NCBI GenBank assembly: GCA_017396665.1
Contig: JAFQLH010000018.1
Location: 1-40,473, forward strand
Direction: 5' to 3'
Source: Oscillospiraceae bacterium
Lineage (GTDB): Bacteria > Bacillota > Clostridia > Oscillospirales > Ruminococcaceae
DNA: 40,473 nt
Shown: one piece after another, positions 1,218 through 34,228 of the stretch
Layout of the letters: each line of letters begins with the position of its first letter
How positions within the stretch are numbered: the first letter of the stretch is position 1
Position numbers and translations under genes: made by a program
The notes under the pieces: model-generated
What the model was told of the DNA's origin: nothing
Database searches by the model: none
Seen by the model: the letters and a program-made list of their open reading frames with translations, nothing else

Positions 1218-1228
1218 TCAAAGCTATA

Positions 1229-1262
1229 ATGGTGCTTTCCTTGGCGGAAGCACCATTTGTGT
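1229..1262 (+). terminator. Rho-independent terminator after GH94 gene
   Basis: GGTGCTTTCC and GGAAGCACC form a stem with a TTGGC loop, followed by a T-rich stretch. The next gene's ribosome binding site begins just after it. Confidence 0.6.
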
Positions 1263-1277
1263 TTCGGAGGTATTGAT

Positions 1278-1718
1278 ATGGAAATACGACTTATGGATAT
1301 AAGCGACTATGAAGCTGTCTATTCTCTCTGGCTTTCCTGCAAGGGTATGGGCCTCAACGACATCGACGACAGCAGGGAGGGTATTGAAAAATACCTAAGG
1401 CGCAACCCGTCTACCTGCTTTGTCGCAACCGACTGCGGTCAGGTTGTCGGAGTAATACTTTCAGGCAACGACGGTCGCCGTGGCTTTATACACCACACCG
1501 CTGTAAGCCCTGCCCGCCGCTGTGAGGGTATAGGAAGGGCTCTTGTTGACACGGCACTTAACGCTCTTAAGGCTGAAGGGATAAGCAAAACCGCCCTCGT
1601 TGTCTTTGAGAGAAACAAGGACGGAAACGCATTCTGGGAAAAGTGCGGATTTGAAAGCCGAAGCGACCTTGTGTACAGAAACAAGGCACTCAGGGAGCTT
1701 AAAAGGCTTGACACATAA
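1278..1718 (+). CDS. GNAT family N-acetyltransferase
   Basis: A 146-residue protein of the GCN5-related acetyltransferase fold, which moves acetyl from acetyl-CoA to an amine; the substrate cannot be told. The acetyl-CoA pyrophosphate-binding loop is seen as RRCEGIGRALV, preceded by the beta-4 strand FIHHTAVSPA, and the fold closes with NAFWEKCGFESR. I chose ATG at 1278 because GGAGG lies 7 bases upstream (1266-1270); a TTG start at 1257 would sit inside the preceding terminator and lacks a binding site. It is probably transcribed alone or by readthrough from the GH94 gene and is closed by a strong terminator at 1731-1769. Confidence 0.88.
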   Translation: MEIRLMDISDYEAVYSLWLSCKGMGLNDIDDSREGIEKYLRRNPSTCFVATDCGQVVGVILSGNDGRRGFIHHTAVSPARRCEGIGRALVDTALNALKAEGISKTALVVFERNKDGNAFWEKCGFESRSDLVYRNKALRELKRLDT

Positions 1719-1730
1719 GGCATAAAGCTA

Positions 1731-1769
1731 AGCACCACGCCTGCCGTTTGGGTAAGCGTGGTGCTTTTA
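1731..1769. terminator. Bidirectional terminator between convergent genes
   Basis: AGCACCACGC and GCGTGGTGCT form a perfect 10-bp stem followed by TTTTATTAT on the plus strand. It lies between the stop codons of the acetyltransferase (+) and the metallophosphoesterase (-). Confidence 0.8.
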
Positions 1770-1779
1770 TTATACTATG

Positions 1780-2643
1780 TTACTGCTCGCACTTGAGGGT
1801 GCACACAACTATGTCGAATGGGTTGAAAAGTCTGAGTGTATAACCGCTGTTTCCTGCACCTGCACTAAGCAGCATTGTGACAGGCTCGTCCTCGTACTCG
1901 CCCGAAACATACTCGGGGAAGATGCTCTGCCCCGGGGCGTATGCGCCGTTGCCGAACGGGAGTCCTATAAGTCCGCCGTGTGCGTGTCCTGAGAACATAA
2001 GGCACTCGCTGAGCCCTATTTTTTCGCACTCGCCTGAGATTATCTCCAAATCCTCGGGGTAGTGGTGGAGCCATATAACGAAGTCCTCGTCTGTTTCTGC
2101 GATTGCCTTTACAGTCTCGTCAAAGCCGCCGCCCTGTACCGAGGTTGTTCCTGCAATCGTGATAGTCTGTCCGTTTCTCTCAAGCTGTGTAACGCTGTCG
2201 TCAAGGACTGTAATCCCGTTTTTTGCACAGCAGTCCTTCATAAGCTGTAAATCAGCTTTTGAGAGCTTCACGTCGTGGTTGCCCCACACGAGATAGCAGG
2301 GCGCAAGCTCTGAAACTCTTTCGAGGAAGTAGTTAGCCCTCGAAACATCGGTACGCACCGAGTCTGCGATATCCCCCGTGATGAAGATGTAGTCGGGGTT
2401 TTGCTCCTCAACCTTTTCAAGGAGTCTTTCACAATAGCTCTCCCCTGCGTTGTGGAAGTCTGAAATCTGAACTATCGTTACTCCGTCAAACTCGCTCGGC
2501 AGAAGCTCGCTCTCAAAGGTGTATTCCTCAGCCGTAGTGAAGCTGTTTGACCTTATAAGCTCTATTGCAAGCAGCACAACCGCCACGCACACAGCAGCGA
2601 GTATTATCTTTTTCTTTTTGGAAAGCGCCTTAAAGCTTTTCAT
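1780..2643 (-). CDS. Membrane-anchored metallophosphoesterase (YkuE-like)
   Basis: A 287-residue calcineurin-like phosphoesterase. An N-terminal basic segment and one hydrophobic helix (about residues 12-26) anchor it, with the catalytic part predicted outside the membrane. All metal-site motifs are visible in order: SDFHN (DxH), ITGDIAD (GD), WGNHD (GNHD), LHHYPE, and SGHAHGG (GHxH). Relatives such as Bacillus YkuE act at the membrane or wall; the substrate here is unknown. It is the last gene of a leftward operon, only 6 bases after the stop of the small Xre regulator. Confidence 0.88.
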   Translation of the reverse strand: MKSFKALSKKKKIILAAVCVAVVLLAIELIRSNSFTTAEEYTFESELLPSEFDGVTIVQISDFHNAGESYCERLLEKVEEQNPDYIFITGDIADSVRTDVSRANYFLERVSELAPCYLVWGNHDVKLSKADLQLMKDCCAKNGITVLDDSVTQLERNGQTITIAGTTSVQGGGFDETVKAIAETDEDFVIWLHHYPEDLEIISGECEKIGLSECLMFSGHAHGGLIGLPFGNGAYAPGQSIFPEYVSGEYEDEPVTMLLSAGAGNSGYTLRLFNPFDIVVCTLKCEQ

Positions 2644-2649
2644 ACAAAA

Positions 2650-2874
2650 CTACTCCTCGGAAATGTTCTCGTCAGATGTGTACTCCAGTATGTCACCCGG
2701 CTGGCAGTCGAGTGTTCGGCATATTGCTTCAAGTGTTGAAAATCTGATTGCACTGACCTTGCCCGTCTTGAGCTTCGAGAGGTTTACGTTTGAAACGCCT
2801 ACCCTCTCGGAAAGCTCGTTGAGGCTCATTTTTCTGTCAGCCATTACTCTGTCAAGTCTTAAAATAATCGCCAT
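2650..2874 (-). CDS. Small Xre/Cro-type transcriptional regulator (YozG-like)
   Basis: A 74-residue protein that is almost entirely one helix-turn-helix domain: MSLNELSERVGVSNVNLSKLKTG gives the turn and recognition helix, and FSTLEAICRTLDCQPGDILEY is the standard C-terminal half. Tiny regulators of this YozG type are commonly encoded beside DUF2975 membrane proteins, as here (14 bases downstream of that gene). It probably controls its own operon; repeated CGATAA boxes lie upstream of the operon promoter at 3658-3761. The effector is not known. Confidence 0.88.
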   Translation of the reverse strand: MAIILRLDRVMADRKMSLNELSERVGVSNVNLSKLKTGKVSAIRFSTLEAICRTLDCQPGDILEYTSDENISEE

Positions 2875-2888
2875 ATTGCCACCCCGGA

Positions 2889-3569
2889 TTAAAGTGTTTC
2901 GTCTGATTCACGCTGGAGCTGTGCGCCGTAGTTGAAGATGTAGATTACGAGGAACACAACTGCTACGAGCATAATTGTCATAAGGTTGATAGAGCCGAGC
3001 AGACCTTCGCCAAGCAGAGTGATTGCAAACCAAGGGATAAGAGAGTAAGCAAAATGCTTCATTCTCTTTGTAACATTCTCCTCAAATGGTGATTCGCACT
3101 TTTCAAATGCCCTCGCAAGCTTTCTTGCAAACACGAGAGTAATGAAGATAGCAAGTCCCATTATAACAAGTGCCGAGCATGCGATGCAGATTATTCCGCC
3201 AAGTCCGATTACTCCGTCAAGCTCGTCGTAAAGCTCCTGCAGATTGAAGCTCGTATTTGCGTTTACTGTAACCTTGCCGTCTTCTTCGGTAGCGTTTGCT
3301 GTGTCAAATTCAAGTCCTGCAACGTTTACGTCAAAGTCCTCGAGGTCGTCGGCTTCAATTATGCTCAATGGAAAGTCGCTTGTGTCAACTGTTACAGTTG
3401 CGTCTGCGTTGAAGTTTAACGATACTGCTTCGTCCTCTACAAAAAGTCCTGCCACTGCAAGTACTGCGAAAACAGCCATCATAACTATCATAAGTGCCTG
3501 CACAACAGTAATAACTATCTGGCTGATTTTTCCTATAAGATTGATTTTCTTTATTGCGTCGTTTTTCAT
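2889..3569 (-). CDS. DUF2975 family membrane protein
   Basis: A 226-residue membrane protein. One hydrophobic helix lies near residues 14-42, then an acidic Thr/Val/Asp-rich extracytoplasmic stretch of about 85 residues, then further helices near 130-155 and 175-220. The conserved FEKCESPFEENVTKRMK segment after the second helix matches the DUF2975 family. The function is not established; the family is usually paired with a YozG-like Xre regulator, as seen here. It is first in the operon DUF2975 - xre - phosphoesterase, driven by a consensus promoter at 3622-3650. Confidence 0.8.
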   Translation of the reverse strand: MKNDAIKKINLIGKISQIVITVVQALMIVMMAVFAVLAVAGLFVEDEAVSLNFNADATVTVDTSDFPLSIIEADDLEDFDVNVAGLEFDTANATEEDGKVTVNANTSFNLQELYDELDGVIGLGGIICIACSALVIMGLAIFITLVFARKLARAFEKCESPFEENVTKRMKHFAYSLIPWFAITLLGEGLLGSINLMTIMLVAVVFLVIYIFNYGAQLQRESDETL

Positions 3570-3621
3570 GATGAATTACCCTTTCGTCTAAAAAATTTGT
3601 TTTGTTTCAGCTGATGTACTC

Positions 3622-3650
3622 AGTATACACCATGCATATTCGTTTGTCAA
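3622..3650 (-). promoter_or_regulatory. Consensus promoter of the DUF2975 operon
   Basis: On the minus strand TTGACA (3650-3645), a 17-base spacer and TATACT (3627-3622) match the sigma-A consensus. The operon start codon is about 50 bases downstream. Confidence 0.85.
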
Positions 3651-3657
3651 CTAATTT

Positions 3658-3761
3658 TTATCGTTTATCATTAAATTTGTAGCTTCTGTACATACCAAGA
3701 GGTCGATTTTGTATGTTTCGCTGTGCAATCTATACGATAAAAATTTATCGACTAACGATAA
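3658..3761. promoter_or_regulatory. Four CGATAA boxes upstream of DUF2975-xre promoter, candidate operator
   Basis: CGATAA, in either orientation, occurs at 3658-3663, 3735-3740, 3745-3750 and 3756-3761; the last three are 10-11 bases apart, on one face of the helix, and two of them form the palindrome CGATAAAAATTTATCG. The nearest box starts 8 bases upstream of the -35 hexamer. Binding by the co-encoded Xre protein is an inference. Confidence 0.45.
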
Positions 3762-3764
3762 AGC

Positions 3765-4028
3765 CACCCGTATATACTTCTATATGTATCTATCGGGGGA
3801 AACCTTTCTGAAGAAAGTTTATCCCCCGGACCCCCTTACAAAGACTTTCAATATGATTTCAGCCCCATAGGGTGTACATCAAAGAGCAGAGAATTATAAA
3901 TCAGTTCTCTTTCTGGTGCATACCCTATGGGGCTGAAATTGTACTAAAAGTTTTAGGAAAGGAGTTTGAGGAACAACCCTTTTTCAAAAGGGTTTTCCTC
4001 AATATACATATAAAACTATATATGAGTG
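3765..4028. repeat. Quasi-palindromic intergenic repeat, copy 1
   Basis: Shared core at 3795-4000. Arm A (hairpin starting GGGGGAAACC, ending ATCCCCC), a central 84-base hairpin at 3856-3939 with stems ATTTCAGCCCCATAGGGT / ACCCTATGGGGCTGAAAT, and arm C (hairpin of AACCCTTTT / AAAAGGGTT closed by GAGG / CCTC). Arm A and the reverse complement of arm C align end to end with mostly transition differences. Symmetry continues into the flanks (3765-3789 against 4004-4028). It lies between the 3' end of the uracil-DNA glycosylase gene and the promoter of the DUF2975 operon. There is no credible ORF in it. Confidence 0.9.
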
Positions 4029-4030
4029 GG

Positions 4031-4699
4031 TTATTTGATTGTCCAATCGATAGGCACTACATCATTTTCGGACAAGAAAGTATTGACCTTTGAGAAATGT
4101 CTGCAGCCGAAGAACCCATTATATGCAGAGAGCGGACTTGGGTGGGCAGCTGTAAACACGGCGTGCTGTGGTGAAGTCACGAGCTGAGCTTTTGTTTTAG
4201 CGTTACCGCCCCAGAGAATAAAAGCGATTGGTTCTTTTCTGAGGTTAAGCTGTCTGATGACCTCGTCTGTGAACTGCTCCCAGCCTTTACCCTTGTGGCT
4301 GTTCGCCTGACCTTCTCTTACGGTGAGCACAGTATTGAGGAGCAAGACGCCCTGCTTTGCCCACGAGGTAAGCTCGCCGTGTGGTGCAGGCTCGATACCG
4401 AGGTCGTCATAGAGCTCCTTGTACATATTGCGAAGCGAGGGTGGAATCTTGCAGCCCTTCTGCACAGAGAAGCACAGACCGTGCGCCTGTCCAATCTCGT
4501 GGTAAGGGTCCTGTCCTATGATAACCGCCTTGACCGACTCAAACGGTGTTGTTTTAAGAGCCGCAAAGACATTCTGCTTTTCGGGGAACACTCTCACGCT
4601 GTCATATTCCTTCTTAAGAAAGCTGCAAAGCTCCTTGAAGTACGGCTTTTCAAATTCAGCCGACAGGACCTTGTCCCAGCCTGAGCCTAGTGTAAACAT
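4031..4699 (-). CDS. ung: Uracil-DNA glycosylase, family 1
   Basis: Removes uracil from DNA as the first step of base excision repair. From ATG at 4699 the protein has 222 residues, close to the usual 220-230. Catalytic signatures are complete: GQDPYH with the water-activating Asp at residue 64, LLNTVLTV (uracil-binding Asn near 122), and the Leu-loop HPSPLSAYNGF with His near 186. The frame is open further upstream, but those extra residues do not resemble the family and overlap a separate 34-residue gene. No good ribosome site precedes 4699; the start is 2 bases after that small gene's stop (TAATTATG), which suggests translational coupling. Confidence 0.95.
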   Translation of the reverse strand: MFTLGSGWDKVLSAEFEKPYFKELCSFLKKEYDSVRVFPEKQNVFAALKTTPFESVKAVIIGQDPYHEIGQAHGLCFSVQKGCKIPPSLRNMYKELYDDLGIEPAPHGELTSWAKQGVLLLNTVLTVREGQANSHKGKGWEQFTDEVIRQLNLRKEPIAFILWGGNAKTKAQLVTSPQHAVFTAAHPSPLSAYNGFFGCRHFSKVNTFLSENDVVPIDWTIK

Positions 4700-4701
4700 A
4701 A

Positions 4702-4806
4702 TTATGCAGCTATTACGCCGGCAATAACTGAGCCGACAACGCCGAGCACCATACCCGCTACGATTATCCATGCAACTATACGCTTTTTCAAATCCTTCTT
4801 TTTCAT
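4702..4806 (-). CDS. 34-residue single-span membrane peptide upstream of ung
   Basis: Reads MKKKDLKKR followed by one hydrophobic span (IVAWIIVAGMVLGVVGSVIA) and a short end. A strong ribosome site (GGAGG, 9 bases before ATG) and its own consensus promoter support it as a real gene. It recalls the short basic-plus-one-helix peptides of Firmicutes grouped as DUF4044-like, but the assignment is tentative. The stop is separated from the ung start by two bases, so the pair is probably one transcript with coupled translation. Confidence 0.72.
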   Translation of the reverse strand: MKKKDLKKRIVAWIIVAGMVLGVVGSVIAGVIAA

Positions 4807-4838
4807 ATTCTTTTCCTCCGTATTGAGATGCTTTAAAC

Positions 4839-4867
4839 ATTATATCACAAAAAGAGTGTTGTTTCAA
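4839..4867 (-). promoter_or_regulatory. Promoter of membrane peptide-ung operon
   Basis: Minus strand TTGAAA (4867-4862), 17-base spacer, TATAAT (4844-4839). It is arranged back to back with the promoter at 4884-4912, their -35 boxes 16 bases apart. Confidence 0.85.
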
Positions 4868-4883
4868 GAAGAATTTTATCCTC

Positions 4884-4912
4884 TTGCAAAGAAAGAGCGG
4901 ATATTGTATAAT
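4884..4912 (+). promoter_or_regulatory. Promoter of the AAA+ ATPase gene
   Basis: TTGCAA, 17-base spacer, TATAAT, about 40 bases before the start codon. It diverges from the ung operon promoter. Confidence 0.85.
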
Positions 4913-4950
4913 AGTAGCGATGTATTCTGTTTTCACAAGGAGGACAACAT

Positions 4951-6912
4951 ATGACTTCATACAACAAGCTTGTAAGGATAAGCCTCAGCGTCCGTCATTT
5001 CGGCAAGGACAAGGAGGCGGCCGCAGCTACCATAGAAAACATCATACGAACCTGCAAGGGCGTTTTCCCCGACGGGATAAAGGTTCTCGAATCGGGAGTG
5101 TCGGGCTGTGAGCTTCTGCTTTCAAGCGGTGCTTTTGACAACGACTACACAGAAAAGATTATTCTCGGAATTGCCAAGGACATACTCGGCGACGTTGAGG
5201 TATCAAAGGTTGTGAAGGTTTCTGTTTCTGACCTTGTTATCGACAAGAAGGAAAAGGGTGCTTCACCTGAGGCACTTATGGAAATCGAAAGACTTGTGGG
5301 CTGTGAGGAATTCAAGGAGCTTGCGAGGGAAATAACCTCGATTGCACCTCAGATTATAAAAAGCTCAACCCAGAAGGTTTTTGCAAACCAGAGCTACCTG
5401 TTTTCAATAAACAGCGGTTGCGGACTTTCTACACACATTTCGCTTTTTGCTGAGCTTATCAACGAGCTTTCTGTTTTCAGCTTCAGCGACGAGCCGTACA
5501 TTGTTGAGGAAACCCTCAGACAGCGTGGCGTTGCAGAGGCACCTGACGCGTACCTAGGAAAGCTTGCCGCACTCAAAAAGGAAAGACACCGCCGTGGCGG
5601 ACAGCTCTACTGCATTGACATAAGCGAGTGGATTGGCAGGACAGACGACAAGGACTTCCGTGAGATGCTGTCGCTTGTTGCCGAAAACAACGAAAACAAC
5701 ATATTCATTTTCCGCATTCCGTTCATTGAGGGAAATGTTTTGAGAGAGGTGCAGGACAGCCTCAGCGATATGCTGTTTATAAGAGAGGTTTCCTTCACGC
5801 CTTACGATATGCCACAGCTTGAGGAGTGTGCTGAAAGAAGCTTCTCCCAGCTCGGCTATACTATGGACAATGATGCGTGGGAAATCTTCGAGACAAGAAT
5901 CGCAGAGGAAAAGAGCGACGGAAGATTCTACGGCATAAACACAGTAAACAAGGTAGTTAACGAAATTATCTACCACAAGCTTGTTTCAAACGCAAAGCAG
6001 GGCAGCGAGGACACTTCTATCTGCAAGCAGGACATTATCTCTCTTGCGGCAACCTACGGTCATCGTGACAAGACCGCTTCTCAGCTTCTTTCAGAGCTTG
6101 TCGGCATGGACGACATCAAGGAAAAGGTCCAGGAGATTGTAAATCAGATAAAGGTTTCTCTGCAAAACGACATCGACTCGCCTTGCCTGCATATGCAGTT
6201 TATCGGAAATCCGGGAACGGGCAAGACTACCGTTGCACGAATTGTCGGAAAGCTCCTCAAGGAAAACGGCGTTTTGCGTAACGGAGATTTCTTCGAGTAC
6301 AGCGGACGTGACTTCTGCGGTAAGTTTATAGGCGAAACCGCCCCGAAGACCGCAAGTATGTGCCGTGACGCATACGGCTCGGTCCTGTTTATCGACGAGG
6401 CGTATTCCCTCTACCGTGGCGACAGCGATTCGAGAGACTTCGGCAGAGAGGCGCTCGACACTCTTATCGCTCAGATGGAAAACCACCGCACAGAATTCGT
6501 TGTGATTATGGCGGGCTACGCCGACGAGATGGAAACGCTCATGAGCGGAAACATCGGTCTTAAAAGCCGTATGCCTTACACGATATCCTTCTCAAATTAC
6601 ACTTCCTCTGAGCTTTTTGAGATTTTTAAAAAGCTTCTGACCGAAACCTTCAAGTACGACGACAAGGTTCTCAATGAGGCAAAATGCTACTTCGAGTCAA
6701 TCCCCGAAAGCGTCCGTGCGTCAAAAGAGTTCTCTAACGCTCGCTTCGTCAGAAACCTCTTCGAGAGAACCTGGAGTAAGGCGGCTATGCGCTCTAAACT
6801 CCTCGGAGAAAGTGAATTCATAGTGACCGCCGAGGACTTTAAGCTCGCTACTACCGAACGTGAGTTTTCTTCCGCTGTCGCTAAGAAAACACGCTCCCTC
6901 GGCTTCAGATAA
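4951..6912 (+). CDS. CbxX/CfxQ-type AAA+ ATPase
   Basis: A 653-residue protein. The C-terminal third is a CbxX/CfqX (SpoVK-like) AAA+ module: Walker A GNPGTGKTT with Lys at 425, Walker B VLFIDEAYSL with Asp-Glu at 482-483, the sensor region FVVIMAGYADEM, and the arginine-bearing segment IGLKSRMPY. The N-terminal 390 residues have no Walker A, but the stretch near 275-345 (FIREVSFTPYDMPQLEE, then a lid-like helical block ending VVNEIIYHKL) resembles the tail of a degenerate AAA module. This fits a two-module remodelling ATPase with one inactive module. Start ATG with AAGGAGG upstream. Family members act on Rubisco activation, sporulation or type VII-related systems; no partner is visible here. 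Confidence 0.85.
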   Translation: MTSYNKLVRISLSVRHFGKDKEAAAATIENIIRTCKGVFPDGIKVLESGVSGCELLLSSGAFDNDYTEKIILGIAKDILGDVEVSKVVKVSVSDLVIDKKEKGASPEALMEIERLVGCEEFKELAREITSIAPQIIKSSTQKVFANQSYLFSINSGCGLSTHISLFAELINELSVFSFSDEPYIVEETLRQRGVAEAPDAYLGKLAALKKERHRRGGQLYCIDISEWIGRTDDKDFREMLSLVAENNENNIFIFRIPFIEGNVLREVQDSLSDMLFIREVSFTPYDMPQLEECAERSFSQLGYTMDNDAWEIFETRIAEEKSDGRFYGINTVNKVVNEIIYHKLVSNAKQGSEDTSICKQDIISLAATYGHRDKTASQLLSELVGMDDIKEKVQEIVNQIKVSLQNDIDSPCLHMQFIGNPGTGKTTVARIVGKLLKENGVLRNGDFFEYSGRDFCGKFIGETAPKTASMCRDAYGSVLFIDEAYSLYRGDSDSRDFGREALDTLIAQMENHRTEFVVIMAGYADEMETLMSGNIGLKSRMPYTISFSNYTSSELFEIFKKLLTETFKYDDKVLNEAKCYFESIPESVRASKEFSNARFVRNLFERTWSKAAMRSKLLGESEFIVTAEDFKLATTEREFSSAVAKKTRSLGFR

Positions 6913-6920
6913 ATATTATA

Positions 6921-7227
6921 CCCACCACAAATTAAGGGTAGCATCCGTATAGGAATTTATGTGTTTCTTGAGGAAAACCCTTTTGAAAAAGGGTTATTCC
7001 TCAAACTCCTTTCCTAAAACTTTTGACTTTAATTTCAGCCCCATAGGGTATGCACCGCAAGAGAACTGATTTAAAATTCTCTGTCTTGTGATGTACACCC
7101 TATGGGGCTGAAATCATATTAAAAGTCTTTGTAAGGGGGCTTGGGGGACAAACTTTCTTCAGAAAGGTTTCCCCCAAAAAATACACATGATTTTCTGTAT
7201 GAACGCTACCCTTGATTTTGTAGTGGG
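6921..7227. repeat. Quasi-palindromic intergenic repeat, copy 2 (fills the gap stop to stop)
   Basis: Reverse orientation relative to copy 1: arm C first. Core 6970-7175, central hairpin 7032-7114. The flanks are inverted repeats of each other over the rest of the gap, for example AAATTAAGGGTAGC near 6929-6942 against GCTACCCTTGATTTT at 7205-7219, and ATGTGT against ACACAT. The element occupies nearly every base between the stop codons of the AAA+ gene (6912) and the SGNH hydrolase gene (7230). Confidence 0.92.
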
Positions 7228-8343
7228 TTATATTTTTGAGGTTATGACAGACACGAGGTAGAACGGGAGCTCATAGTTATCCTTACTGTCTATAATCTCG
7301 ACGGTGAGGGTATGAGGCTTATTTTCGTCTGAGATGAGTATATCTGTAAGGCAGATAAGGTCGCCCCAGGTTTCCCCGAAGTTTCCGTCGAGTATTACAG
7401 CGTTGTCCTCGTCGCCGTCGAGCACCGCTTTAGCGATGCAGGCAGGCTTTTTGACAGTCTTTCTGTACTGGAGTGATACCACCGCACAATCGCCCAGCTC
7501 AAACTCAAGCTTTGAGCCTACGCCTCTGCCCTCCCAGCCGTTTGAGAACACCTCAGTAATATTATTCTGTATTCTCTCATCGGCGGCAAAGCCGACCGCC
7601 TTCGGTGTGCAGTTTTTATTCTGCAGTCTCATGCTGTTTTGAAATCTGAGCTTTGTGAGGCTGCCTCTCTCCTCGTCTTTAACCGCATACAGCGGAGTCA
7701 TAGACATATCCTCAAGGCAGGAGCAGATTATAGTTGCAACGAGAGCGTGACCGCTGTCGCTTGGGTGCAGCATATCTCCTGTGAGGTCGCTTGCGTTGAT
7801 TTCGCCGTCCTGAATCTTAGGGTAGATAAAATCCCTTATGCTTATCGCAGGGAGCGAATAGTAGCTTGCAACCGTGTTATGTATTCTCTGGGCGTTGTGG
7901 CCGTCATCGTAAAACAGGTTGTTCACAACAACCACCGCAGGCTTCTTCTCGCTGTCGAGGATTGTTCTCACAAGGCTCTCATAGCTTTCCATAAACAAGT
8001 CGTTGTCCTCGTCGTTCACGCTGAACTCGACGATAACAAAATCCGGCTTGTGACAAAGCAGGTCACTGTGCACTCTTGCACAGGCAAACTGAGAGGTAGT
8101 TGCGCCGATACCCGCATTAACGTATCTGCAGTTTTCGCCGAAGCGTTCTACCCACCACTTCCACACTCTGTACGCATAGCAGTTTTCATGACGGCTCGCA
8201 CCGCTTCCCATTGTGATTGAGCCACCGATAAAGCCGATTACGACCTCCTCGCCTCTTTCAGCCTTCTCGACAACCTTCAGAAGTCTTTCCCTGTCGCCCA
8301 TGCTGACAAGTGCCCTGTCATACAAATTGATGTAGTCTACCAT
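7228..8343 (-). CDS. SGNH/GDSL-family hydrolase
   Basis: An esterase-type hydrolase, probably removing acyl groups from carbohydrate or another small substrate; no signal peptide is seen, so it is predicted cytoplasmic. Blocks in order: block I FIGGSITMGSG with the nucleophile Ser, block II with the Gly of NAGIGATTS, block III SVNDEDND with Asn, and block V MLHPSDSGH with the catalytic Asp/His. The C-terminal 130 residues form an extra beta-rich domain. ATG at 8343 (371 residues) follows CAGGGATT; a GTG at 8376 after AAGGAAAAAGAG is possible and would include a small CCCGAT/TTCGGG stem in the coding region. Its 3' end abuts repeat copy 2. Confidence 0.85.
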   Translation of the reverse strand: MVDYINLYDRALVSMGDRERLLKVVEKAERGEEVVIGFIGGSITMGSGASRHENCYAYRVWKWWVERFGENCRYVNAGIGATTSQFACARVHSDLLCHKPDFVIVEFSVNDEDNDLFMESYESLVRTILDSEKKPAVVVVNNLFYDDGHNAQRIHNTVASYYSLPAISIRDFIYPKIQDGEINASDLTGDMLHPSDSGHALVATIICSCLEDMSMTPLYAVKDEERGSLTKLRFQNSMRLQNKNCTPKAVGFAADERIQNNITEVFSNGWEGRGVGSKLEFELGDCAVVSLQYRKTVKKPACIAKAVLDGDEDNAVILDGNFGETWGDLICLTDILISDENKPHTLTVEIIDSKDNYELPFYLVSVITSKI

Positions 8344-8397
8344 AATCCCTGCCCGAAGTATTATCGGGCTTTGCACCTCTTTTTCCTTAAAATCAAT

Positions 8398-23816: not shown

Positions 23817-25607
23817 ATGAATGTGACAAAGGATATTTTCTACGTAGGAGTAAATGACCACAACATTGACCTGTTTGAAGGACAGTATGTTGTACCTAAC
23901 GGTATGGCTTACAACTCATACGTAATCGTTGATGAGAAAATTGCTGTAATGGACACAGTTGACGCAAGCTTCACACATCAGTGGCTTGACAACATCGAGA
24001 ACGTGCTTGGCGGAAGAAAACCCGACTACCTTGTTGTTCAGCATATGGAGCCTGACCATTCGGCAAACATTTTAAACTTTATGAAGGCTTATCCTGATGC
24101 GGTTGTTGTATCATCGGCAAAGGCTTTTGTGATGATGAAGAACTTCTTCGGAAATGACTTTTCCGACAACCGCATAGTCATCGGAGAGGGCGACACCCTT
24201 TCACTCGGAAGACACACCCTCACCTTCGTGACTGCGCCTATGGTTCACTGGCCTGAGGTTATTGTTACCTATGATAGTCTTGACAAGGTTCTTTTCTCTG
24301 CTGACGGCTTCGGAAAGTTCGGCGCTCTCGATGTCAACGAAGACTGGGCCTGCGAGGCAAGACGCTACTACATCGGTATTGTAGGAAAGTACGGCGCTCA
24401 GGTTCAGGGACTTCTCAAGAAGGCTGCAGGTCTTGACATAGAGATAATCTGCCCGCTTCACGGCCCTGTTCTCTCTGAAAACCTCGGCTACTACCTTAAC
24501 CTTTACAACATCTGGTCAAGCTACGATGTTGAAACAGAGGGAATTGTTATCGCATACACATCTGTTTACGGCAACACAAAGAAGGCTGTTATGCAGCTCG
24601 CTGAAAAGCTCAAGGCAAACGGCTGCCCTAAGGTTGTAGTAAACGACCTCGCAAGATGCGATATGGCAGAGGCAGTTGAAGACGCATTCCGCTACGGAAA
24701 GCTTGTTCTTGCAACAACCACCTACAACGCTGAAATATTCCCGTTTATGCGTGAGTTCATAAATCACCTCACAGAAAGAAACTTCCGCAACAGGACTGTT
24801 GCGTTTATCGAAAACGGAAGCTGGGCGCCTCAGGCAACCAAGGTTATGAAGCGTATGCTCGAAAAGTGCGTGAACTTAAAGTACACAGAAAACGGCGTGA
24901 AGATTATGTCCGCACTCAACGAGGAAAGCTCTGCTCAGGTTGACGCTCTTGCTAAGGAGCTCTGCATGGAATACCTCGCTCAGCAGGACGAAACCGCTAA
25001 CAAGAACGATATGAACGCCCTCTCCAACATCGGCTACGGTCTGTATGTTGTTACCTCAAACGACGGAAAGAAGGACAACGGTCTTATCGTAAATACTGTT
25101 ACTCAGGTTAGCGAAAACCCGACAAAAATCGCTGTTACTATTAATAAGCAGAACTACTCCCACCACGTTATCAAGCAGACCGGTATTATGAATGTCAACT
25201 GCCTGTCAGAAAGTGCTCCGTTTGCTGTGTTTGAGTGCTTCGGCTTCAGAAGCGGAAGAAATGTAAACAAGTTTGAGGGCTGTGAGCCTCTTCACTCGGA
25301 TAACGGCCTTATCTTCCTCCCAAGACATATCAATGCGTTTATGTCGCTCAAGGTTGAACAGTATGTAGACCTCGGCTCGCATGGTATGTTTATCTGCGAA
25401 ATCACCGAGGCAAGAGTCATAAACGACGAAAAGAGTATGACCTACGCCTACTACCACGAAAATGTCAAGCCAAAGCCCGATACCCAGGGTAAGAAGGGCT
25501 ATGTCTGCAAAATCTGTGGCTTCATCTATGAGGGAGAAGAACTCCCCGATGACTTCATCTGCCCACTCTGTAAACACGGCGCCGCAGACTTCGAACCAAT
25601 AGTATAG
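23817..25607 (+). CDS. Multidomain flavodiiron protein with flavin reductase and rubredoxin domains
   Basis: 596 residues. Flavodiiron enzymes reduce oxygen to water, or nitric oxide to nitrous oxide, protecting anaerobes. Domains in order: metallo-beta-lactamase-like diiron core (1-240) with ligands His76, Glu78, Asp80, His144, Asp163, His215; flavodoxin domain (242-385) with FMN loop TSVYGNTKKA; flavin reductase-like FMN domain (about 405-540, GLYVVTSNDGKKDNGLIVNTV); and C-terminal rubredoxin (555-596) with CKIC (564, 567) and CPLC (582, 585). Such fusion brings its own electron carriers. It has its own promoter with an operator-like palindrome; its stop codon is part of repeat copy 3. Confidence 0.95.
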   Translation: MNVTKDIFYVGVNDHNIDLFEGQYVVPNGMAYNSYVIVDEKIAVMDTVDASFTHQWLDNIENVLGGRKPDYLVVQHMEPDHSANILNFMKAYPDAVVVSSAKAFVMMKNFFGNDFSDNRIVIGEGDTLSLGRHTLTFVTAPMVHWPEVIVTYDSLDKVLFSADGFGKFGALDVNEDWACEARRYYIGIVGKYGAQVQGLLKKAAGLDIEIICPLHGPVLSENLGYYLNLYNIWSSYDVETEGIVIAYTSVYGNTKKAVMQLAEKLKANGCPKVVVNDLARCDMAEAVEDAFRYGKLVLATTTYNAEIFPFMREFINHLTERNFRNRTVAFIENGSWAPQATKVMKRMLEKCVNLKYTENGVKIMSALNEESSAQVDALAKELCMEYLAQQDETANKNDMNALSNIGYGLYVVTSNDGKKDNGLIVNTVTQVSENPTKIAVTINKQNYSHHVIKQTGIMNVNCLSESAPFAVFECFGFRSGRNVNKFEGCEPLHSDNGLIFLPRHINAFMSLKVEQYVDLGSHGMFICEITEARVINDEKSMTYAYYHENVKPKPDTQGKKGYVCKICGFIYEGEELPDDFICPLCKHGAADFEPIV

Positions 25608-25855
25608 CCACTTTGCACGCTTTTATTGAGGAAAACCCTTTTGAAAAAGGGTTATTCCTCAAACTCCTTTCCTAAAACTTTTGACTTTAATTTCAGCCCC
25701 ATAGGGTATGCACCAAGAGAGATGAAAAATTCTCTGCTTTGTGATGTACACCCTATGGGGCTGAAATAATATTAAAAGTCTTTGTAAGGGGGTCCGGGGG
25801 ATAAACTTTCTTCAGAAAGGTTTCCCCCGACAAAAACATGCAAAGTGGCTATACT
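25601..25855. repeat. Quasi-palindromic intergenic repeat, copy 3 (mirrors both stop codons)
   Basis: Orientation C-B-A. Core 25628-25828, central hairpin 25690-25767. The outer arms AGTATAGCCACTTTGCA (25601-25617) and its exact reverse complement (25839-25855) contain the TAG stops of both convergent genes. Core, central hairpin and outer arms share one centre near 25728. Confidence 0.93.
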
Positions 25856-26586
25856 GAGGCACGTCTTTTACGGTAGGCGAGTTTACGGTAGGCGGAAGGG
25901 GTGACGCCTGAGAACTCTTTAAAGAGCTTTGCGAAGTGGCTTTCTGTTGCGAAATAGAGGACACTTGCAATCTGGGCTACCGAATAGTCTGTATAGCTGA
26001 GCATAAGCTTTGCCTCGTCGATTTTCTTTTCGTTTATGTAGGTCTTGAGGGTAACGCCGACCTCACTGTGAAAGTGTCTTGAGAAATATGTCGGACTGCA
26101 GCCTGCCGCAGCTGCGACCTCGTCGAGCGTAAGCCTTGAGTGGAGGTTGTCATAGATATAGTCAATCCCCTTCATTACGGGCTTTGAGAAAGGCGTCTTC
26201 TTTCTGAGCCTCTCCATACGCTTTGTGTACTCCAAGACAAGCTCACGGTGGATATCCTTTATCTGCGAGGTGGAATTGCAAAGGTCTATACGGTTTATGT
26301 AGGCGTCACTTAAGGTGTACGCCTCCTCCATTTCAAGACCGCCCTCTATGCAGTATCTTGTTATAAAAGCAACTGTGATAACAAGGTGGTACTTTAAATT
26401 CCTCACCTCGTCACGGCTCAGCCTTCCCAAGCCGTCCGAGTCAAGCGGCTTGAAAAGTCTCTCGACCTCGCTCTTGTTTCCGAGCTGTATGTTGCGGTAA
26501 AAAGCCATTTCTCTGTCGTACGGGAGATGGCTGACACGGTACTCACGGTTTTCATAAACAAGCGTCAGAAGCTCTTTACTATCCAA
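25849..26586 (-). CDS. AraC-family transcriptional regulator
   Basis: 245 residues from a TTG start with AAGGAGG 7 bases upstream. The C-terminal 100 residues are the double helix-turn-helix AraC domain: LTLDEVAAAAGCSPTYFSRHFHSEVG and SVAQIASVLYFATESHFAKLFKEFSGVTPSAYRK. The N-terminal 140 residues are helical (FYRNIQLGNKSEVERLF) like the sensor part of many Firmicutes carbohydrate regulators and have no cupin motif. It diverges from the GH16-GH5 operon and is the likely regulator of it. Confidence 0.92.
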   Translation of the reverse strand: MDSKELLTLVYENREYRVSHLPYDREMAFYRNIQLGNKSEVERLFKPLDSDGLGRLSRDEVRNLKYHLVITVAFITRYCIEGGLEMEEAYTLSDAYINRIDLCNSTSQIKDIHRELVLEYTKRMERLRKKTPFSKPVMKGIDYIYDNLHSRLTLDEVAAAAGCSPTYFSRHFHSEVGVTLKTYINEKKIDEAKLMLSYTDYSVAQIASVLYFATESHFAKLFKEFSGVTPSAYRKLAYRKRRASV

Positions 26587-29609: not shown

Positions 29610-32609
29610 ATGATATCGGCATTATTCAAAAAAGCAATAGCTACTGTGGCAGCGGTTGCTACGCTCGTTTCAAGCGGTGCAGGTGCTTTTGCACAGACAG
29701 TTTTATCAGAAGGCTCTGTTCAGCCTATGGAAAGCAGTAACACGGTTATTACCGTTTACAGCGAAGCTGACGGACTTCCGACAGGCGAGGCTAATACAGT
29801 TCTGCAGACCTCCGACGGATACATCTGGATAGGCAGCTACGGCGGACTTATCCGATACGACGGAGAACATTTCAGGAATTACTCGGCAGAGGGGCTTATA
29901 GATTCCTCCTCCATACGTTCGCTGTTTGAAGACTCATACGGCAGGCTGTGGATTGGCACAAACGACAAGGGCGTTTATTTAATGCAGGACGATACGATTG
30001 GACATATCCCTTGCGATATTCCAGATGATTTTCTGTGCATAAGAGATTTTGCGGAAAGCCTTGACGGAAGAATTATCGTTGCTTCTACATCGGGCCTTGG
30101 CGAGGTCGAAAACAACAGCTTGACCCTTATGCCTTACGAAAACACCCAGATACACGGCGAGCCGGTATACTCTATTGCTATCGACAGCTTCAACAGAATA
30201 TGGGCAAGCATAAACGCAGGGCGTTGCTACGTTATTCAGAATCAGTCGGTTGTTATGGGCTACGAGCCTGACGATTTCTTCTCAGACGGTGTAGATATAT
30301 ACTCTGTTGCAAACGACTATGACAACAATATTTACCTCGGAAGCTACGGCGACGAGCTTGTAAAAATATCTTTTACCGAGCAGGACAGCGAGAGTCTTGC
30401 TCCCGATAGTCTGAACAAGGAAACCTTCTACACAGGCTCTGTTCAGACACACAACCAGCTCAACGTTTCTCCTTCAAATGATATTCTCGTGAGCGGTATA
30501 GCAGGCTTTGGCGTGTTCGACACAAAAACCAACAGCTTTACCGAATACAGCGATGCTGACACACTTTCGTCAATCAACTGGGCAACCGTTGACTACGAGG
30601 GCAACATCTGGCTTGCATCTACAAGTCAGGGTGTAATAAAGCTCACTCAGGGCTGCTTTGAAAACTACAACAGCTCGGCTGCTCTCACAGAGGTTTCTGT
30701 AAATGCGGTGCATCTTTCGGACGGCTGTTTCTACATTGCAACTGACACGGGACTTATAATCTGTGACAGCAACTGGGACAGGGTGGATAACAGCCTTACA
30801 GAGCTTCTGCAGGGAATCAGAATAAGACAGATAACCACCGACTCGCAGGGCAACATCTGGATTGCGACATACTCCGAATACGGCGCTGTGAAATATAATC
30901 CGGAAAGTGAAGAAACAGAATACTTCGATTCTGAAAAGGGTGTTAAGAGCGACAAGGTGAGAGTTATAGAGTCTATGCAAAACGGCGATATTGTTATCGG
31001 TGCACAGCGAGGACTCACCGTCGTCAGAGATGACAAGGTTATAAAGACCTATGACACCGACGACGGCTTTGCCGCTACGGCTGTTCTTTGTATGATGGAG
31101 CTGGACGGCTCACTCTTTGTCGGCACAGACGGAAGCGGTATATATGAAATTACAAGCGAGGGCAAAATAAAGGTTCACAGTTACTCTGAGGGGCTTTTAG
31201 AGGGCGTTGTTCTCAGAATGTGCCCCGACCCCGATAATATGTCAAACTACTTTGTCAGTGCGGGAAGCTCGCTTTACTACTTCGACAGTGAGGCAGGTTC
31301 ATTCCGAAAGCTTGACAACTTCACAAAGGGCCCGGGAAGCATTTACGACTTCTATGTCCGTATGGGAAAGCTGTGGATTCTCCAGAACAACGGCATTATC
31401 TCAGTTGACAAGAACGCTCTTCTTTCGGGAAAGAATCCTAAGACAAGGACCTACGGTGTAGAGCACGGTCTTACAGGCACGCTCAACGCTAACACATGGA
31501 ATTCCTATAACAGCAACAGTGACCTTCTCTATGTTGCGACAAGAAGTGGCGTAAGCATATTCAGCTTTACAGAAATTCCGTACATTTTCCCGAAGGGTAT
31601 CATAAACAGCGTGTCGGTTGACAACACGATAATAGAGCACCCTGAAACCGTGTCGCTTAAGAAGGATGCACAGCGTATTACAATCGACTTCTCGGCTCTT
31701 ACCTACACGGGAACAACCCCGCTCAACATCGGCTACACGCTTGAGGGCTTCGACAGCGAGGAGTTCTTTGTTACTGACAGCAACAACGCTCTTGTCAGCT
31801 ACACAAACCTGCCCGGCGGAAAGTATTACTTCAAGGTCAGAATCTTTGACCCTGTTACAGGACAGACGCTCTCAAACTACACGCTCATAATCGAAAAGGA
31901 CAAGAGGCTCACAGAGTATGCACTTTTCTGGGTACTGCTTGTTGTCGGAATATTTGCGGCAGCTTCGATTCTCTTCCTCATTGTTTTCAAGGCGAAGACA
32001 AAACGCTACGAAAAGCACCAGAGAGAGCTTCAGTCAATCGTTGACCTGTCACTCAAGACAACTGCGAAAATCATCGACGCCAAGGACGAATACACAAACG
32101 GCCACTCTATCAGAGTTGCTTACTATTCAAGAGAGCTTGCCAGAGAAATGGGCTTCTCAGACGAGGAGCAGAAGCGAATCTACTCTATCGCACTCTTGCA
32201 CGACATCGGAAAGATTGGCGTTCCCGACAGCATCCTCAACAAGCCAAGCAGGCTCACAGATGAGGAGTTTTCTGTCATCAAGGAGCACGTTACCGTCGGC
32301 GGAGAAATCCTCGAAGAATTCAGCGTAATCAAGGGAATACAGGACGGCGCTAAGTACCACCACGAAAGATACGACGGAAACGGCTACTGCGAAAACAGGT
32401 CGGGCGAGAGCATCCCGCTCGTCGCAAGAATTATCTGCGTCGCAGACAGCTACGACGCTATGCAGAGTACAAGATGCTACCGTGACGGACTGTCAACCGA
32501 AAAGATTATCGAAGAGCTCAAAAACGGCGCAGGTACTCAGTTCGACCCGGATATCGTTCCGCATATGCTCTCACTCATCGAAAGAGGTATCGCACCTCTC
32601 GGCTTCTGA
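29610..32609 (+). CDS. Membrane sensor: beta-propeller, Y_Y_Y and HD-GYP domains
   Basis: 999 residues. A signal peptide (to about 30) is followed by two-component-regulator-type propeller repeats (DGYIWIGSYGGLIRYDG, YGRLWIGTNDKGVYL, GNIWLASTSQGVIKL and others to about 660), a Y_Y_Y-like domain (about 675-765), one membrane helix (about 770-793) and a cytoplasmic HD-GYP domain (815-990). The metal residues are present: DAKDEYTNGHS, LHDIGKIG, HVTVGG, KYHHERYDGNGY. The signature GYP reads GYC and the later RPY reads RCY. HD-GYP enzymes degrade cyclic di-GMP; this would couple an external polymer or sugar signal to that messenger. GGAGG lies 10 bases before the ATG. Confidence 0.92.
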   Translation: MISALFKKAIATVAAVATLVSSGAGAFAQTVLSEGSVQPMESSNTVITVYSEADGLPTGEANTVLQTSDGYIWIGSYGGLIRYDGEHFRNYSAEGLIDSSSIRSLFEDSYGRLWIGTNDKGVYLMQDDTIGHIPCDIPDDFLCIRDFAESLDGRIIVASTSGLGEVENNSLTLMPYENTQIHGEPVYSIAIDSFNRIWASINAGRCYVIQNQSVVMGYEPDDFFSDGVDIYSVANDYDNNIYLGSYGDELVKISFTEQDSESLAPDSLNKETFYTGSVQTHNQLNVSPSNDILVSGIAGFGVFDTKTNSFTEYSDADTLSSINWATVDYEGNIWLASTSQGVIKLTQGCFENYNSSAALTEVSVNAVHLSDGCFYIATDTGLIICDSNWDRVDNSLTELLQGIRIRQITTDSQGNIWIATYSEYGAVKYNPESEETEYFDSEKGVKSDKVRVIESMQNGDIVIGAQRGLTVVRDDKVIKTYDTDDGFAATAVLCMMELDGSLFVGTDGSGIYEITSEGKIKVHSYSEGLLEGVVLRMCPDPDNMSNYFVSAGSSLYYFDSEAGSFRKLDNFTKGPGSIYDFYVRMGKLWILQNNGIISVDKNALLSGKNPKTRTYGVEHGLTGTLNANTWNSYNSNSDLLYVATRSGVSIFSFTEIPYIFPKGIINSVSVDNTIIEHPETVSLKKDAQRITIDFSALTYTGTTPLNIGYTLEGFDSEEFFVTDSNNALVSYTNLPGGKYYFKVRIFDPVTGQTLSNYTLIIEKDKRLTEYALFWVLLVVGIFAAASILFLIVFKAKTKRYEKHQRELQSIVDLSLKTTAKIIDAKDEYTNGHSIRVAYYSRELAREMGFSDEEQKRIYSIALLHDIGKIGVPDSILNKPSRLTDEEFSVIKEHVTVGGEILEEFSVIKGIQDGAKYHHERYDGNGYCENRSGESIPLVARIICVADSYDAMQSTRCYRDGLSTEKIIEELKNGAGTQFDPDIVPHMLSLIERGIAPLGF

Positions 32610-32620
32610 TAAGCAGGCAT

Positions 32621-32857
32621 GCAGGTGTGTAAGTATATATTGGGGAAATCTTTCTGAAGAAAGCTTCCCCCAAGCCCCCTTCAAAGACTTTTAATATTAA
32701 TTCAGCCCCATAGGGTGTACATCACAAAGCAGAGAATAATTCATCTCTCTTGGTGCATACCCTATGGGGCTGAATTTGTGTCAAAAGTTTTAGGAAAGGA
32801 GTTTGAGGAAAAGCCCTTTTTCAAAAGGGTTTTCCTCAAGACATACTACATAACTGT
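32621..32857. repeat. Quasi-palindromic intergenic repeat, copy 4
   Basis: Orientation A-B-C as copy 1. Core 32642-32837, central hairpin 32700-32775. The outermost stem has AATTCAG / CTGAATT where the other copies have ATTTCAG / CTGAAAT, a paired substitution. The flanks are imperfectly mirrored, and the right one supplies the stop and last codons of the transglutaminase-like gene. Confidence 0.9.
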
Positions 32858-34228
32858 ATTATTCTTCATATAGCCTGAGGTATATTCATACGGGGTGAGG
32901 TAATATGACCAAGGTCCATACTTTTTGATATTACCGCTTTCCATGATATACGTTACGCCGTCGATATCGACCTCGGTCCAGAAGTGCTGCCAACGGCTGG
33001 TGCCTGTTGAGTTACAGCGCCAGCCCTTGATGACTCTGACGTCATAGCCCATATAAGCCATCATAGCAGCCATTGCGCCGTTATACTGAACGCACTGTCC
33101 ATACTTCTTTGTAAAGATTGATTCTACCCATGAATTTGTGACGTGGGTATAAGAGGTATCGTATGTAACCTCGGTATTAATCCAGTTAAGAGTATACTGG
33201 AGTCTTTCGTTTCTTGTCATACCTGCGAAGTTCTTTGCAAACTTATCGAGAATCTTCTTGTCCTCTGCAGTGATTGTGTATGTCCAGTCGTAGACAGTTG
33301 TACTGCCCTGAGCGTCGTGCACCTTTACCTCGTAGTGTCTCTTGGAGAGGTCAGCCGCATTGAGAATTGCGTCATAGGTGTTAGTGTACACAACGTTACT
33401 TCCTGAGCTATAGTACCATGTGCCCTTTACGTTACGGTAAGCCTGAACCTTGTAGGAATAGTCATTGCCATCGACTGCGGTCTTGTCAACCCAGCTTGTG
33501 CCTGTAACCTTCTTGATAAGCTTATAAGCTCCGCCGTTTTCGCTTCTGTAAATCTTATAGCCCTCGGCTCTTACGTTCTTGTCCCAGCTAAGCTTTACTC
33601 CTGAGCTGTACTTAGCGAGCTTGAGTGTAGGAACCTTAGACTTTGCAACGCAGGTTCTCTGAACGGTGTTGCTGTAATAGTCCTTGCCGTCTTCGCCGTG
33701 AACAACGCCCTTGACCTTGTAGTAATAGCCGCCGAACTGCAGAAGGTTGTTGTCGTAGTAATACGCGTTAGGTGTCTTGTCGTAAAGAACATAGTTCTTT
33801 GTAACTGAGCTGTAACGGTAGATATAGTACTCATCACAGCCAAGGTCGGTCCAGGACATCTTAATCTGAGAGGTTGTAGTACCTCTGCCGTAGATTACGT
33901 CAATTGTACCTACGCCGATATCGTAGCTTACTGCGTCTTCCATTGTTCCGCTGTAATCACCGATAAACTGAATGTCTGCTGTAACACTTCCGATTTCTGC
34001 TGACGGATTTACAACCTTGAAGTCCTCTCCCTGAGTGAGAGCCTGTCCGTCATATGTAAGTGTAACAGTCGGGCCTGTCTTGATTGTTGCGTCGGAAACC
34101 TCACCGATTACCACCTTTGAAGTGTCAACCTGAGAAGCTATTTCTTCCGCCGCTGCCGCTATACCCTGAGCCGAGAATGACAATGTCATTGCAAGCGCCA
34201 GAGCAAGCGAGGTTACTCGTTTCTTCAT
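32846..34228 (-). CDS. Secreted transglutaminase-like protein with Fn3-type domains
   Basis: 460 residues. I chose the second ATG (34228) because AGGAG is 8 bases from it and only 2 from the first. A signal peptide (MKKRVTSLALALAMTL, cleaved near AAAAEE) precedes a short beta domain (to about 105), two Fn3-like domains (about 105-195, KMSWTDLGCDEYYIYR; 195-285, KLSWDKNVRAEGYKIYR) and a transglutaminase-core domain with Cys in KYGQCVQYNGA, His in WQHFWTEVDIDG and a following acidic residue in TYIMESGN. Such secreted domains act as proteases or crosslinkers at the surface. The C-terminus runs into repeat copy 4. Confidence 0.88.
   Translation of the reverse strand: MKKRVTSLALALAMTLSFSAQGIAAAAEEIASQVDTSKVVIGEVSDATIKTGPTVTLTYDGQALTQGEDFKVVNPSAEIGSVTADIQFIGDYSGTMEDAVSYDIGVGTIDVIYGRGTTTSQIKMSWTDLGCDEYYIYRYSSVTKNYVLYDKTPNAYYYDNNLLQFGGYYYKVKGVVHGEDGKDYYSNTVQRTCVAKSKVPTLKLAKYSSGVKLSWDKNVRAEGYKIYRSENGGAYKLIKKVTGTSWVDKTAVDGNDYSYKVQAYRNVKGTWYYSSGSNVVYTNTYDAILNAADLSKRHYEVKVHDAQGSTTVYDWTYTITAEDKKILDKFAKNFAGMTRNERLQYTLNWINTEVTYDTSYTHVTNSWVESIFTKKYGQCVQYNGAMAAMMAYMGYDVRVIKGWRCNSTGTSRWQHFWTEVDIDGVTYIMESGNIKKYGPWSYYLTPYEYTSGYMKNNTVM

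What the first reader, a model, noticed from the sequence alone, without database searches (positions are those of the whole stretch)
6921..7227. Inverted symmetry extends beyond the shared core into locus-specific flanks
Outside the common core the flanks differ between loci, yet at each locus left and right flanks are reverse complements. Copy 2: AAATTAAGGGTAGC on the left, GCTACCCTTGATTTT on the right. Copy 3: AGTATAGCCACTTTGCA and its exact complement. Copy 1: CACCCGTATATA and TATATATGAGTG. Copy 4: weaker. Target-site duplications of transposons would be direct, not inverted. Mirrored unique flanks imply a copying process, for example snap-back synthesis or template switching at a palindrome, or an insertion mechanism that duplicates one flank in inverse. 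The palindrome in copy 2 reaches almost from stop codon to stop codon.
Basis: partly seen in the sequence, partly recalled or inferred. Interest (0 to 1): 0.9.

Follow-up and report, generated by a model that had tools for sequence, protein, structure and literature searches.

The report
Stop-to-stop palindromic repeats at gene ends
Dozens of copies of a DNA repeat that can fold back on itself sit at gene ends in these gut bacteria, and at most of these places the DNA on its two sides is an imperfect mirror copy reaching from one gene's stop signal to the other's, so something keeps the two sides matched.

Summary
In 69 full copies from two species, own left and right flanks are far better reverse complements than flanks paired across copies (21.3 against 10.3; best of 10,000 permutations 12.7); a wider set of 74 elements gives 26.2 against 8.8. 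The flanks are not simply unique host DNA: most fit one degenerate palindromic consensus, so they look like the element's closing stem. They differ more between copies than the core does, yet paired sites change together (223 concordant double changes, 99 expected). The mirror reaches the stop codon and fades there. In the two main species copies are mostly between convergent genes and never, among 70 classifiable hits, between divergent ones. Six compact empty orthologues hold an ordinary hairpin instead; they cannot show which side was mirrored. At 8 of 9 shared sites the orthologous core is not the nearest, and the core is inverted at three. Best reading: a palindromic repeat in the 3'-end slot, with locus-bound arms kept complementary and a homogenised core. 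Termination activity and the mechanism that keeps the arms paired are inferred.

The parts
6913..6967 (+). left arm of copy 2: noncoding DNA from the stop codon of 4951-6912 to the core
   Evidence: own-arm alignment, distance to stop 55 nt
6968..7175 (+). shared core of copy 2
   Evidence: core boundaries set, coordinates; mean core identity between copies 0.89-0.92, by gap costs
6968..7004 (+). hairpin H1 of the core (part of the inverted half-unit)
   Evidence: folds; aligned with other half-units
7031..7115 (+). central stem-loop of the core; its apex is variable between copies and its sequence differs in other species
   Evidence: fold, alignment of 56 copies, relatives
7121..7175 (+). 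half-unit with hairpin H3 (7143-7175); a 56-position covariance model of the half-unit matches 63 of 394 genomes of the order
7176..7227 (+). right arm of copy 2, imperfect mirror of the left arm, ends at the stop codon of 7228-8376 (-)
3751..4046 (-). copy 1 with 44 nt on each side (core 3795-4002)
25582..25872 (+). copy 3 with 44 nt on each side (core 25626-25828); perfect 17-nt mirror block that includes the stop codon of 23817-25607
32597..32883 (-). copy 4 with 44 nt on each side (core 32641-32839); weak mirror

Best explanation
These are copies of one family of interspersed palindromic repeats that occupy the noncoding slot at gene 3' ends, often the whole space between two convergent stop codons. 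Each copy is a four-way-junction palindrome: a core (two inverted hairpin half-units around a central stem) closed by a long stem made of the two 'mirrored flanks'. The arms are the element's own closing stem at that locus. They drift apart between loci but stay complementary within a locus, because the pairing is kept by selection on a hairpin at the 3' end of the facing genes (probably a bidirectional terminator or 3'-end protector), very likely helped by arm-to-arm template switching. The core is homogenised among copies and can be inverted in place by recombination or template switching, so the core looks shared and the flanks look unique. Shown here: symmetry, shared degenerate arm consensus, concordant change, stop-to-stop extent, context bias, different histories of core and arms. 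Inferred: terminator activity, and the shares of selection and template switching.
For: Symmetry and extent. Shared arm consensus, and 223 concordant double changes against 99 expected; the excess stays above twofold in all five sets tried. 46 convergent, 24 tandem, 0 divergent of 70 classifiable hits (8 of 78 not), against 88 convergent, 453 tandem, 80 divergent of 621 adjacent gene pairs in about 787 kb. At 42 convergent copies with a clear mirror the core-to-stop distances agree (Spearman 0.78; median difference 4 nt, 14 when re-dealt); the arms are more centred than 56 ordinary hairpins (relative asymmetry 0.045 against 0.14, p 0.003). Without any score filter, 82 convergent arms keep mirror identity 0.67-0.79 over the last ten noncoding bases, ordinary hairpins 0.43-0.72. 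Left arms A-rich and right arms T-rich 30-60 nt out. Arm mismatches favour transitions (411:180, against 2022:2048 in alignments around seven shared sites; 357:176 in 62 copies of the wider set). Empty orthologues hold an ordinary hairpin in the slot. Orthologous core not nearest at 8 of 9 shared sites; inverted at 3.
Against: No transcript data; the simple terminator scan, which allows loops of only 3-8 bases, finds none in copy 2. The transition bias is smaller with other windows: 467:262, 388:272 for one-sided changes. At tandem sites G-U and A-C mismatches on the sense strand are about equal (63 and 56), which does not favour RNA of one strand. Excess double changes have ts:tv 68:56, close to all deviations (1.18), which fits templated copying at least as well as stepwise compensation. 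Near-perfect 30-39 nt arms in other species exceed what a terminator needs. Closely related shared sites show no concerted rewriting by eye. RNAalifold on all 69 pairs the two half-units with each other and gives no closing stem. Two parsed G269 copies show no mirror.
Confidence: 0.6

Rival explanations
1. Snap-back template switching at the element copies one gene's 3' noncoding flank onto the other side in inverse, creating mirror arms in single events.
For: 39, 34, 30 and 27 identical mirror bases at single loci, more perfect than the inner element ends; no other G221 copy matches the 39-nt left arm (query 164-214) over its whole length; some arms hold, by eye, a complete small hairpin with its loop mirrored, as L323; double-change spectrum like that of all changes; core inversion at 3 of 9 shared sites, loop inversion being a described outcome of template switching (PMC8794818, outline with abstract, and one results section read).
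Against: Mirror identity falls at the stop codon even where no gene lies at the mirrored place: coding part 0.299 against 0.262 +/- 0.021 (36 arms). Arms share a family consensus, and parts of the 39-nt arm do match other G221 copies (C7 from query base 172 at 82%, C33 from 181, C24 from 188). No empty allele with one flank copy (by eye). The one mirror running deep into coding, L240, lies next to the end of the held sequence.
Confidence: 0.28
2. The core inserts into the loop of an existing bidirectional terminator, whose two stem halves become the locus-specific mirrored flanks.
For: Ordinary convergent spacers here have a median of 57 nt and one roughly centred hairpin; outer arms often start with an A-tract and a GC-rich stem, by eye; one filled/empty pair (L048/L038) shows the empty hairpin's A and T tracts roughly in line with the filled arms.
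Against: The arm consensus reaches about 35 nt from the core; in the other five compact empty alleles the hairpin stem does not match the filled arms, by eye; 30-39 bp perfect stems are longer than ordinary terminators.
Confidence: 0.25
3. A MITE or REPIN-like transposon whose terminal inverted repeats simply decayed; the mirror is only what is left of them.
For: Degenerate palindromic arm consensus; inverted pair of half-units around a spacer, REPIN-like.
Against: Own arms agree more than independent decay allows: concordant double changes more than twice expectation in all five sets. No Y1/RAYT transposase beyond a fragment at a contig end of G000 (other transposases not searched).
Confidence: 0.1
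4. Assembly or binning artefact.
For: Several contigs end in copies; L240 has a mirror running into coding next to the end of the held sequence.
Against: Same pattern in records labelled Ruminococcus flavefaciens strains (L170, L199, L182) and inside long contigs; mirror arms carry mismatches.
Confidence: 0.02

Closest known systems
SPRITE of Streptococcus pneumoniae (PMC3049150, passages read)
   Same: Small interspersed repeat shaped like a rho-independent terminator, overrepresented between convergent genes, close to neighbouring genes, suspected of co-option as terminator
   Different: SPRITE is an 18-bp duplex followed by a U-rich tract; here a three-hairpin core closed by a stem that diverges between loci and runs from stop codon to stop codon
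REP/BIME with RAYT (PMC2817692, abstract read); the name REPIN is recalled
   Same: Hairpin units in inverted orientation, extragenic, many copies
   Different: No Y1/RAYT transposase beyond a fragment in 11 genomes; units of about 56 nt; closed by a co-varying stem
MITEs such as RUP and BOX (review PMC10969869, passages read)
   Same: Non-coding, palindromic, dispersed, intergenic
   Different: No target-site duplication recognised, no parental element sought beyond Y1; the arms are conserved in complementarity more than in sequence
Template-switch mutations at hairpins (PMC8794818, outline with abstract and one section read)
   Same: Stems created or corrected, and loops inverted, by reverse-complement copying
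   Different: Described there for RNA genes; here a repeated intergenic element at many loci

Membership tests
MITE | terminal inverted repeats | tested here: met
   degenerate 35-nt palindromic arm consensus, 49 of 69 left and 59 of 69 right arms
MITE | direct target-site duplication | tested here: inconclusive
   filled and empty alleles compared at 7 of 10 candidate sites (6 compact); spacers too diverged to see a duplication
MITE | parental transposase with the same ends | tested here: inconclusive
   only Y1 transposases were searched
REPIN/REP-RAYT | RAYT (Y1) transposase in the genome | tested here: not met
   1 of 11 genomes matched PF01797, a 31-position fragment at a contig end; several of these genomes are incomplete drafts
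REPIN/REP-RAYT | two hairpin units in inverted orientation | tested here: met
   inverted half-unit pairs: 74 found in 73 of 177 loci by a profile; 37 of 122 units by a strict pattern
SPRITE-like terminator repeat | enrichment between convergent genes near stop codons | tested here: met
   46 of 70 convergent, 0 divergent against 88 of 621 convergent in background
SPRITE-like terminator repeat | stem followed by a T tract | tested here: inconclusive
   outer right arms T-rich on average, but no terminator call in copy 2
Intrinsic terminator | stops transcription | not testable with these tools
   no expression data
Known Rfam RNA family | match at gathering score | tested here: not met
   window: only two tRNAs; only sub-threshold matches for copy 2 and for the G024 copy in L013

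The most novel reading that the evidence does not exclude
In these bacteria the palindromic element works as a template-switch site: replication snaps back at it and rewrites the 3' noncoding end of one gene as the reverse complement of its neighbour's, so that facing genes come to share mirror-image 3' ends, locus by locus, in several genera.
Probability: 0.25. Interest if true: 0.87.

Novelty: new variant of a known kind. Interest (0 to 1): 0.66.

Why it matters
Whether paired stems evolve by slow compensatory change or by one-step copying between arms is an old question. Here nature gives many copies of one element at different loci, with filled, empty and inverted alleles in related species, so the two can be told apart by counting. 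It also shows a repeat family whose shared core and private arms have different histories, and which sits in the slot of ordinary hairpins between facing genes in rumen and gut Ruminococcus relatives.

Tried and rejected
Target-site duplication: flanks are inverted, not direct. Known RNA family: none at gathering score, only weak matches. RAYT-driven REPIN: Y1 family absent but for one fragment. RNA on one strand only: sense G-U and A-C about equal. RNAalifold on all 69 copies gave the half-units pairing with each other and no closing stem, and the script then stopped on an error; I used re-dealing tests instead. In one search identity to the consensus was no better than for shuffled arms because gaps were too cheap; one search repeats it with dearer gaps. 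Alignment A1 holds 56 of 69 copies; 13, many with weak arms, were left out, and only the remark on the variable central apex rests on it. One search failed on a parameter. One search filtered own arms by score but not the re-dealt ones; the unfiltered comparison is. Paper searches: (four 15-17 nt pieces of the element, no paper); no title or abstract start listed there describes this repeat.

Full report
What is there. The window is contig C74 of G000, a 1.83 Mb draft genome. The stretch 6921-7227 is one of four copies in the window and one of 32 matching places in the genome, some partial or at contig ends. G006 and G007 of the same genus gave no match. Copy 2 folds as a four-way junction: hairpin H1, a central stem, hairpin H3, closed by a long stem made of the flanks (DNA z -10.2; RNA z -15.1). 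H1 and H3 belong to inverted half-units of about 56 nt. A covariance model of the half-unit matches 63 of 394 genomes and 32 of 168 genera of the order at E up to 1e-4 (at most 14 candidates scored per genome). By a simple pattern 37 of 122 units have an inverted partner; the Desulfovibrio and Planctomycetota rows that were printed have none.

Is the mirror real? I extracted 78 hits and kept the 69 that cover the element from end to end. Own left against own right flank scores 21.3, other pairings 10.3, shuffled sequence 8.2; the best of 10,000 permutations reaches 12.7. From 45 nt outside the core the difference is nearly gone (7.26 against 6.88). In 74 inverted pairs from 73 of 177 searched loci the same test gives 26.2 against 8.8, best of 5,000 permutations 12.1, own flank best for 47 of 74. 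This wider set is not wholly independent: some of its loci come from G004, and the titles of L204-L240 were not shown. In 17 paired elements from G001-type species and G024 it gives 20.4 against 12.8 (two of the 17 rows are the same G024 place and some are one site in sister species); there the arms are clearly shared element parts. In one search, 9 of 20 fetched loci could be parsed: own 24.9 against 8.7 within genomes, with no mirror in the two G269 copies. In one search, 10 of 20 could be parsed.

Are the flanks unique host DNA? Mostly not in G000 and G004. With dear gaps, 49 of 69 left and 59 of 69 right arms fit one 35-nt palindromic consensus better than 95% of shuffles (identity 0.69 and 0.72, shuffled 0.57). 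Between copies left arms are about 64% alike, the core about 92%, own left against own right 74% (300 random pairs for the first two; with other gap costs the core gives 0.89-0.91). At consensus positions 223 double changes are concordant, with 99 +/- 9 expected when arms are re-dealt; the excess holds in G000 alone (85 against 37), G004 alone (138 against 64), without one subfamily and the G004 member of shared sites (170 against 76), and with one copy per cluster (168 against 78).

Where the mirror ends. At 42 convergent copies with a clear mirror, the noncoding lengths left and right of the core agree (Spearman 0.78; median difference 4 nt, 14 when re-dealt). Over 123 gene-side arms with a clear mirror, out of 172 with a stop codon 10-90 nt from the core, mirror identity is 0.66-0.79 through the last ten noncoding bases, 0.67, 0.59 and 0.38 in the stop codon, 0.51 and 0.44 in the next two, then near background. 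The re-dealt control rises from 0.36 to 0.65 over the same ten bases, because the alignment end is optimised, and was not filtered by score. Without a filter, 82 convergent G000 and G004 arms give 0.67-0.79 and ordinary hairpins 0.43-0.72. In the 36 clear arms, out of 55, with no gene at the mirrored place on the other side (for 6 no gene was found on that side at all; L043 and L124 look like one place), the coding part is 0.299 against 0.262 +/- 0.021. The 56 ordinary hairpins between convergent genes are also centred between stop codons, less tightly. Copy 3 has 17 identical mirror bases that include the stop codon of its left gene; ten orthologues end at the same residue, but the same bases resemble the arm consensus, so this does not prove copying of host DNA.

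Context. Of 78 hits, 46 are convergent, 24 tandem, 0 divergent and 8 not classifiable. Background in about 787 kb, which includes the window: 88 convergent, 453 tandem, 80 divergent adjacent gene pairs. In the wider set 30 are convergent, 18 tandem, 1 divergent, 25 unclassified.

Filled and empty sites. Nine sites are filled in both species with both flanks aligned, two more are split at contig ends and two more appear. At 3 of the 9 the core is inverted relative to its genes: L019/L050, L023/L063, L029/L054. In L023/L063 the arms stay with the genes while the core flips; in L029/L054 the inner arms flip with the core. At 8 of the 9 the orthologous core is not the nearest (rank 14-35 of 44 in G004; 3-22 of 25 the other way); for example the L054 core is 99% like L059 and 92% like its orthologue, whose arms are 95-98% alike. 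Cores of the two species are on average 89% alike, so rank alone is weak evidence, but near-identical non-orthologous cores point to homogenisation. One search gave ten two-flank pairs without an element; I examined seven. Six are compact and each carries an ordinary hairpin with A and T tracts where the filled allele has the element; the seventh (L031) has a hairpin and more inserted DNA. By eye none shows a single copy of the filled flank; only L048/L038 aligns at all within the spacer. Not examined: L028/L041 (inconsistent order), L032/L283 and L066/L263 (gaps over 1 kb). G006 also has a hairpin at the L041 site.

Selection or copying? For selection on pairing: mismatches within arms favour transitions (411:180, against 2022:2048 around seven shared sites; 357:176 in 62 copies of the wider set; less so with other windows, 467:262:272), the mirror ends near the stop codon, and the element takes the slot of terminator-like hairpins. 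For copying: excess double changes show ts:tv of 68:56, about the spectrum of all deviations (1.18), so transversions are about as often concordant as transitions (my division of the counts); in G221 and G300 single loci carry 39, 34 and 30 identical mirror bases while the inner element ends match less well. The 39-nt arm is matched only in part by other G221 copies, best by one from base 172 of 164-214 at 82%, so it is related to the family's arms but most like its own mirror. Equal G-U and A-C counts on the sense strand of tandem copies (63, 56) do not point to RNA of one strand. I therefore commit to complementary arms kept by structural selection with template switching as a likely helper, and rate pure inverse copying at 0.28.

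Known relatives. The nearest is the SPRITE of the pneumococcus (passages of PMC3049150). REP elements share the inverted hairpin units but not the RAYT (abstract of PMC2817692). Template switching is described as creating and correcting stems and inverting loops (PMC8794818, outline with abstract and one section). In nine paper searches no listed title or abstract start describes this repeat.

Noticed in passing
window 1-7230 against G004 C27 and C50 (L055, L056): Gene order around window copies 1 and 2 is rearranged in G004 in a way that fits an inversion of about window 1780-6912 with element copies at the new junctions; window 1-1270 and 2684-3836 are 97% and 93% identical to G004 while neighbours are 72-73%.
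   Followed up: partly
L056:12725-12991 and L055:1-168 (G004): The G004 counterpart of window copy 1 is split between two contig ends, each running from the element into other DNA that looks like a mobile-element insertion.
   Followed up: no
L081:1950-2080 (G000) and L282:17740-18122 (G004): Same site with a single-hairpin core between mirrored arms in G000 and a full core in G004.
   Followed up: partly
L143, L146 (MAGs labelled Desulfovibrio), L145, L133 (MAGs labelled Planctomycetota): The half-unit motif occurs in records labelled as other phyla, in one Desulfovibrio record as three tandem units about 208 nt apart.
   Followed up: partly
L240:7275-7660: A mirror of about 110 nt that runs into the coding sequence of the left gene and reaches the end of the held sequence: a real long palindrome or an assembly fold-back.
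   Followed up: partly
G000 contigs C26, C27, C37, C47: Contigs begin or end inside copies of the element, so the element breaks assemblies and copy counts are uncertain.
   Followed up: no
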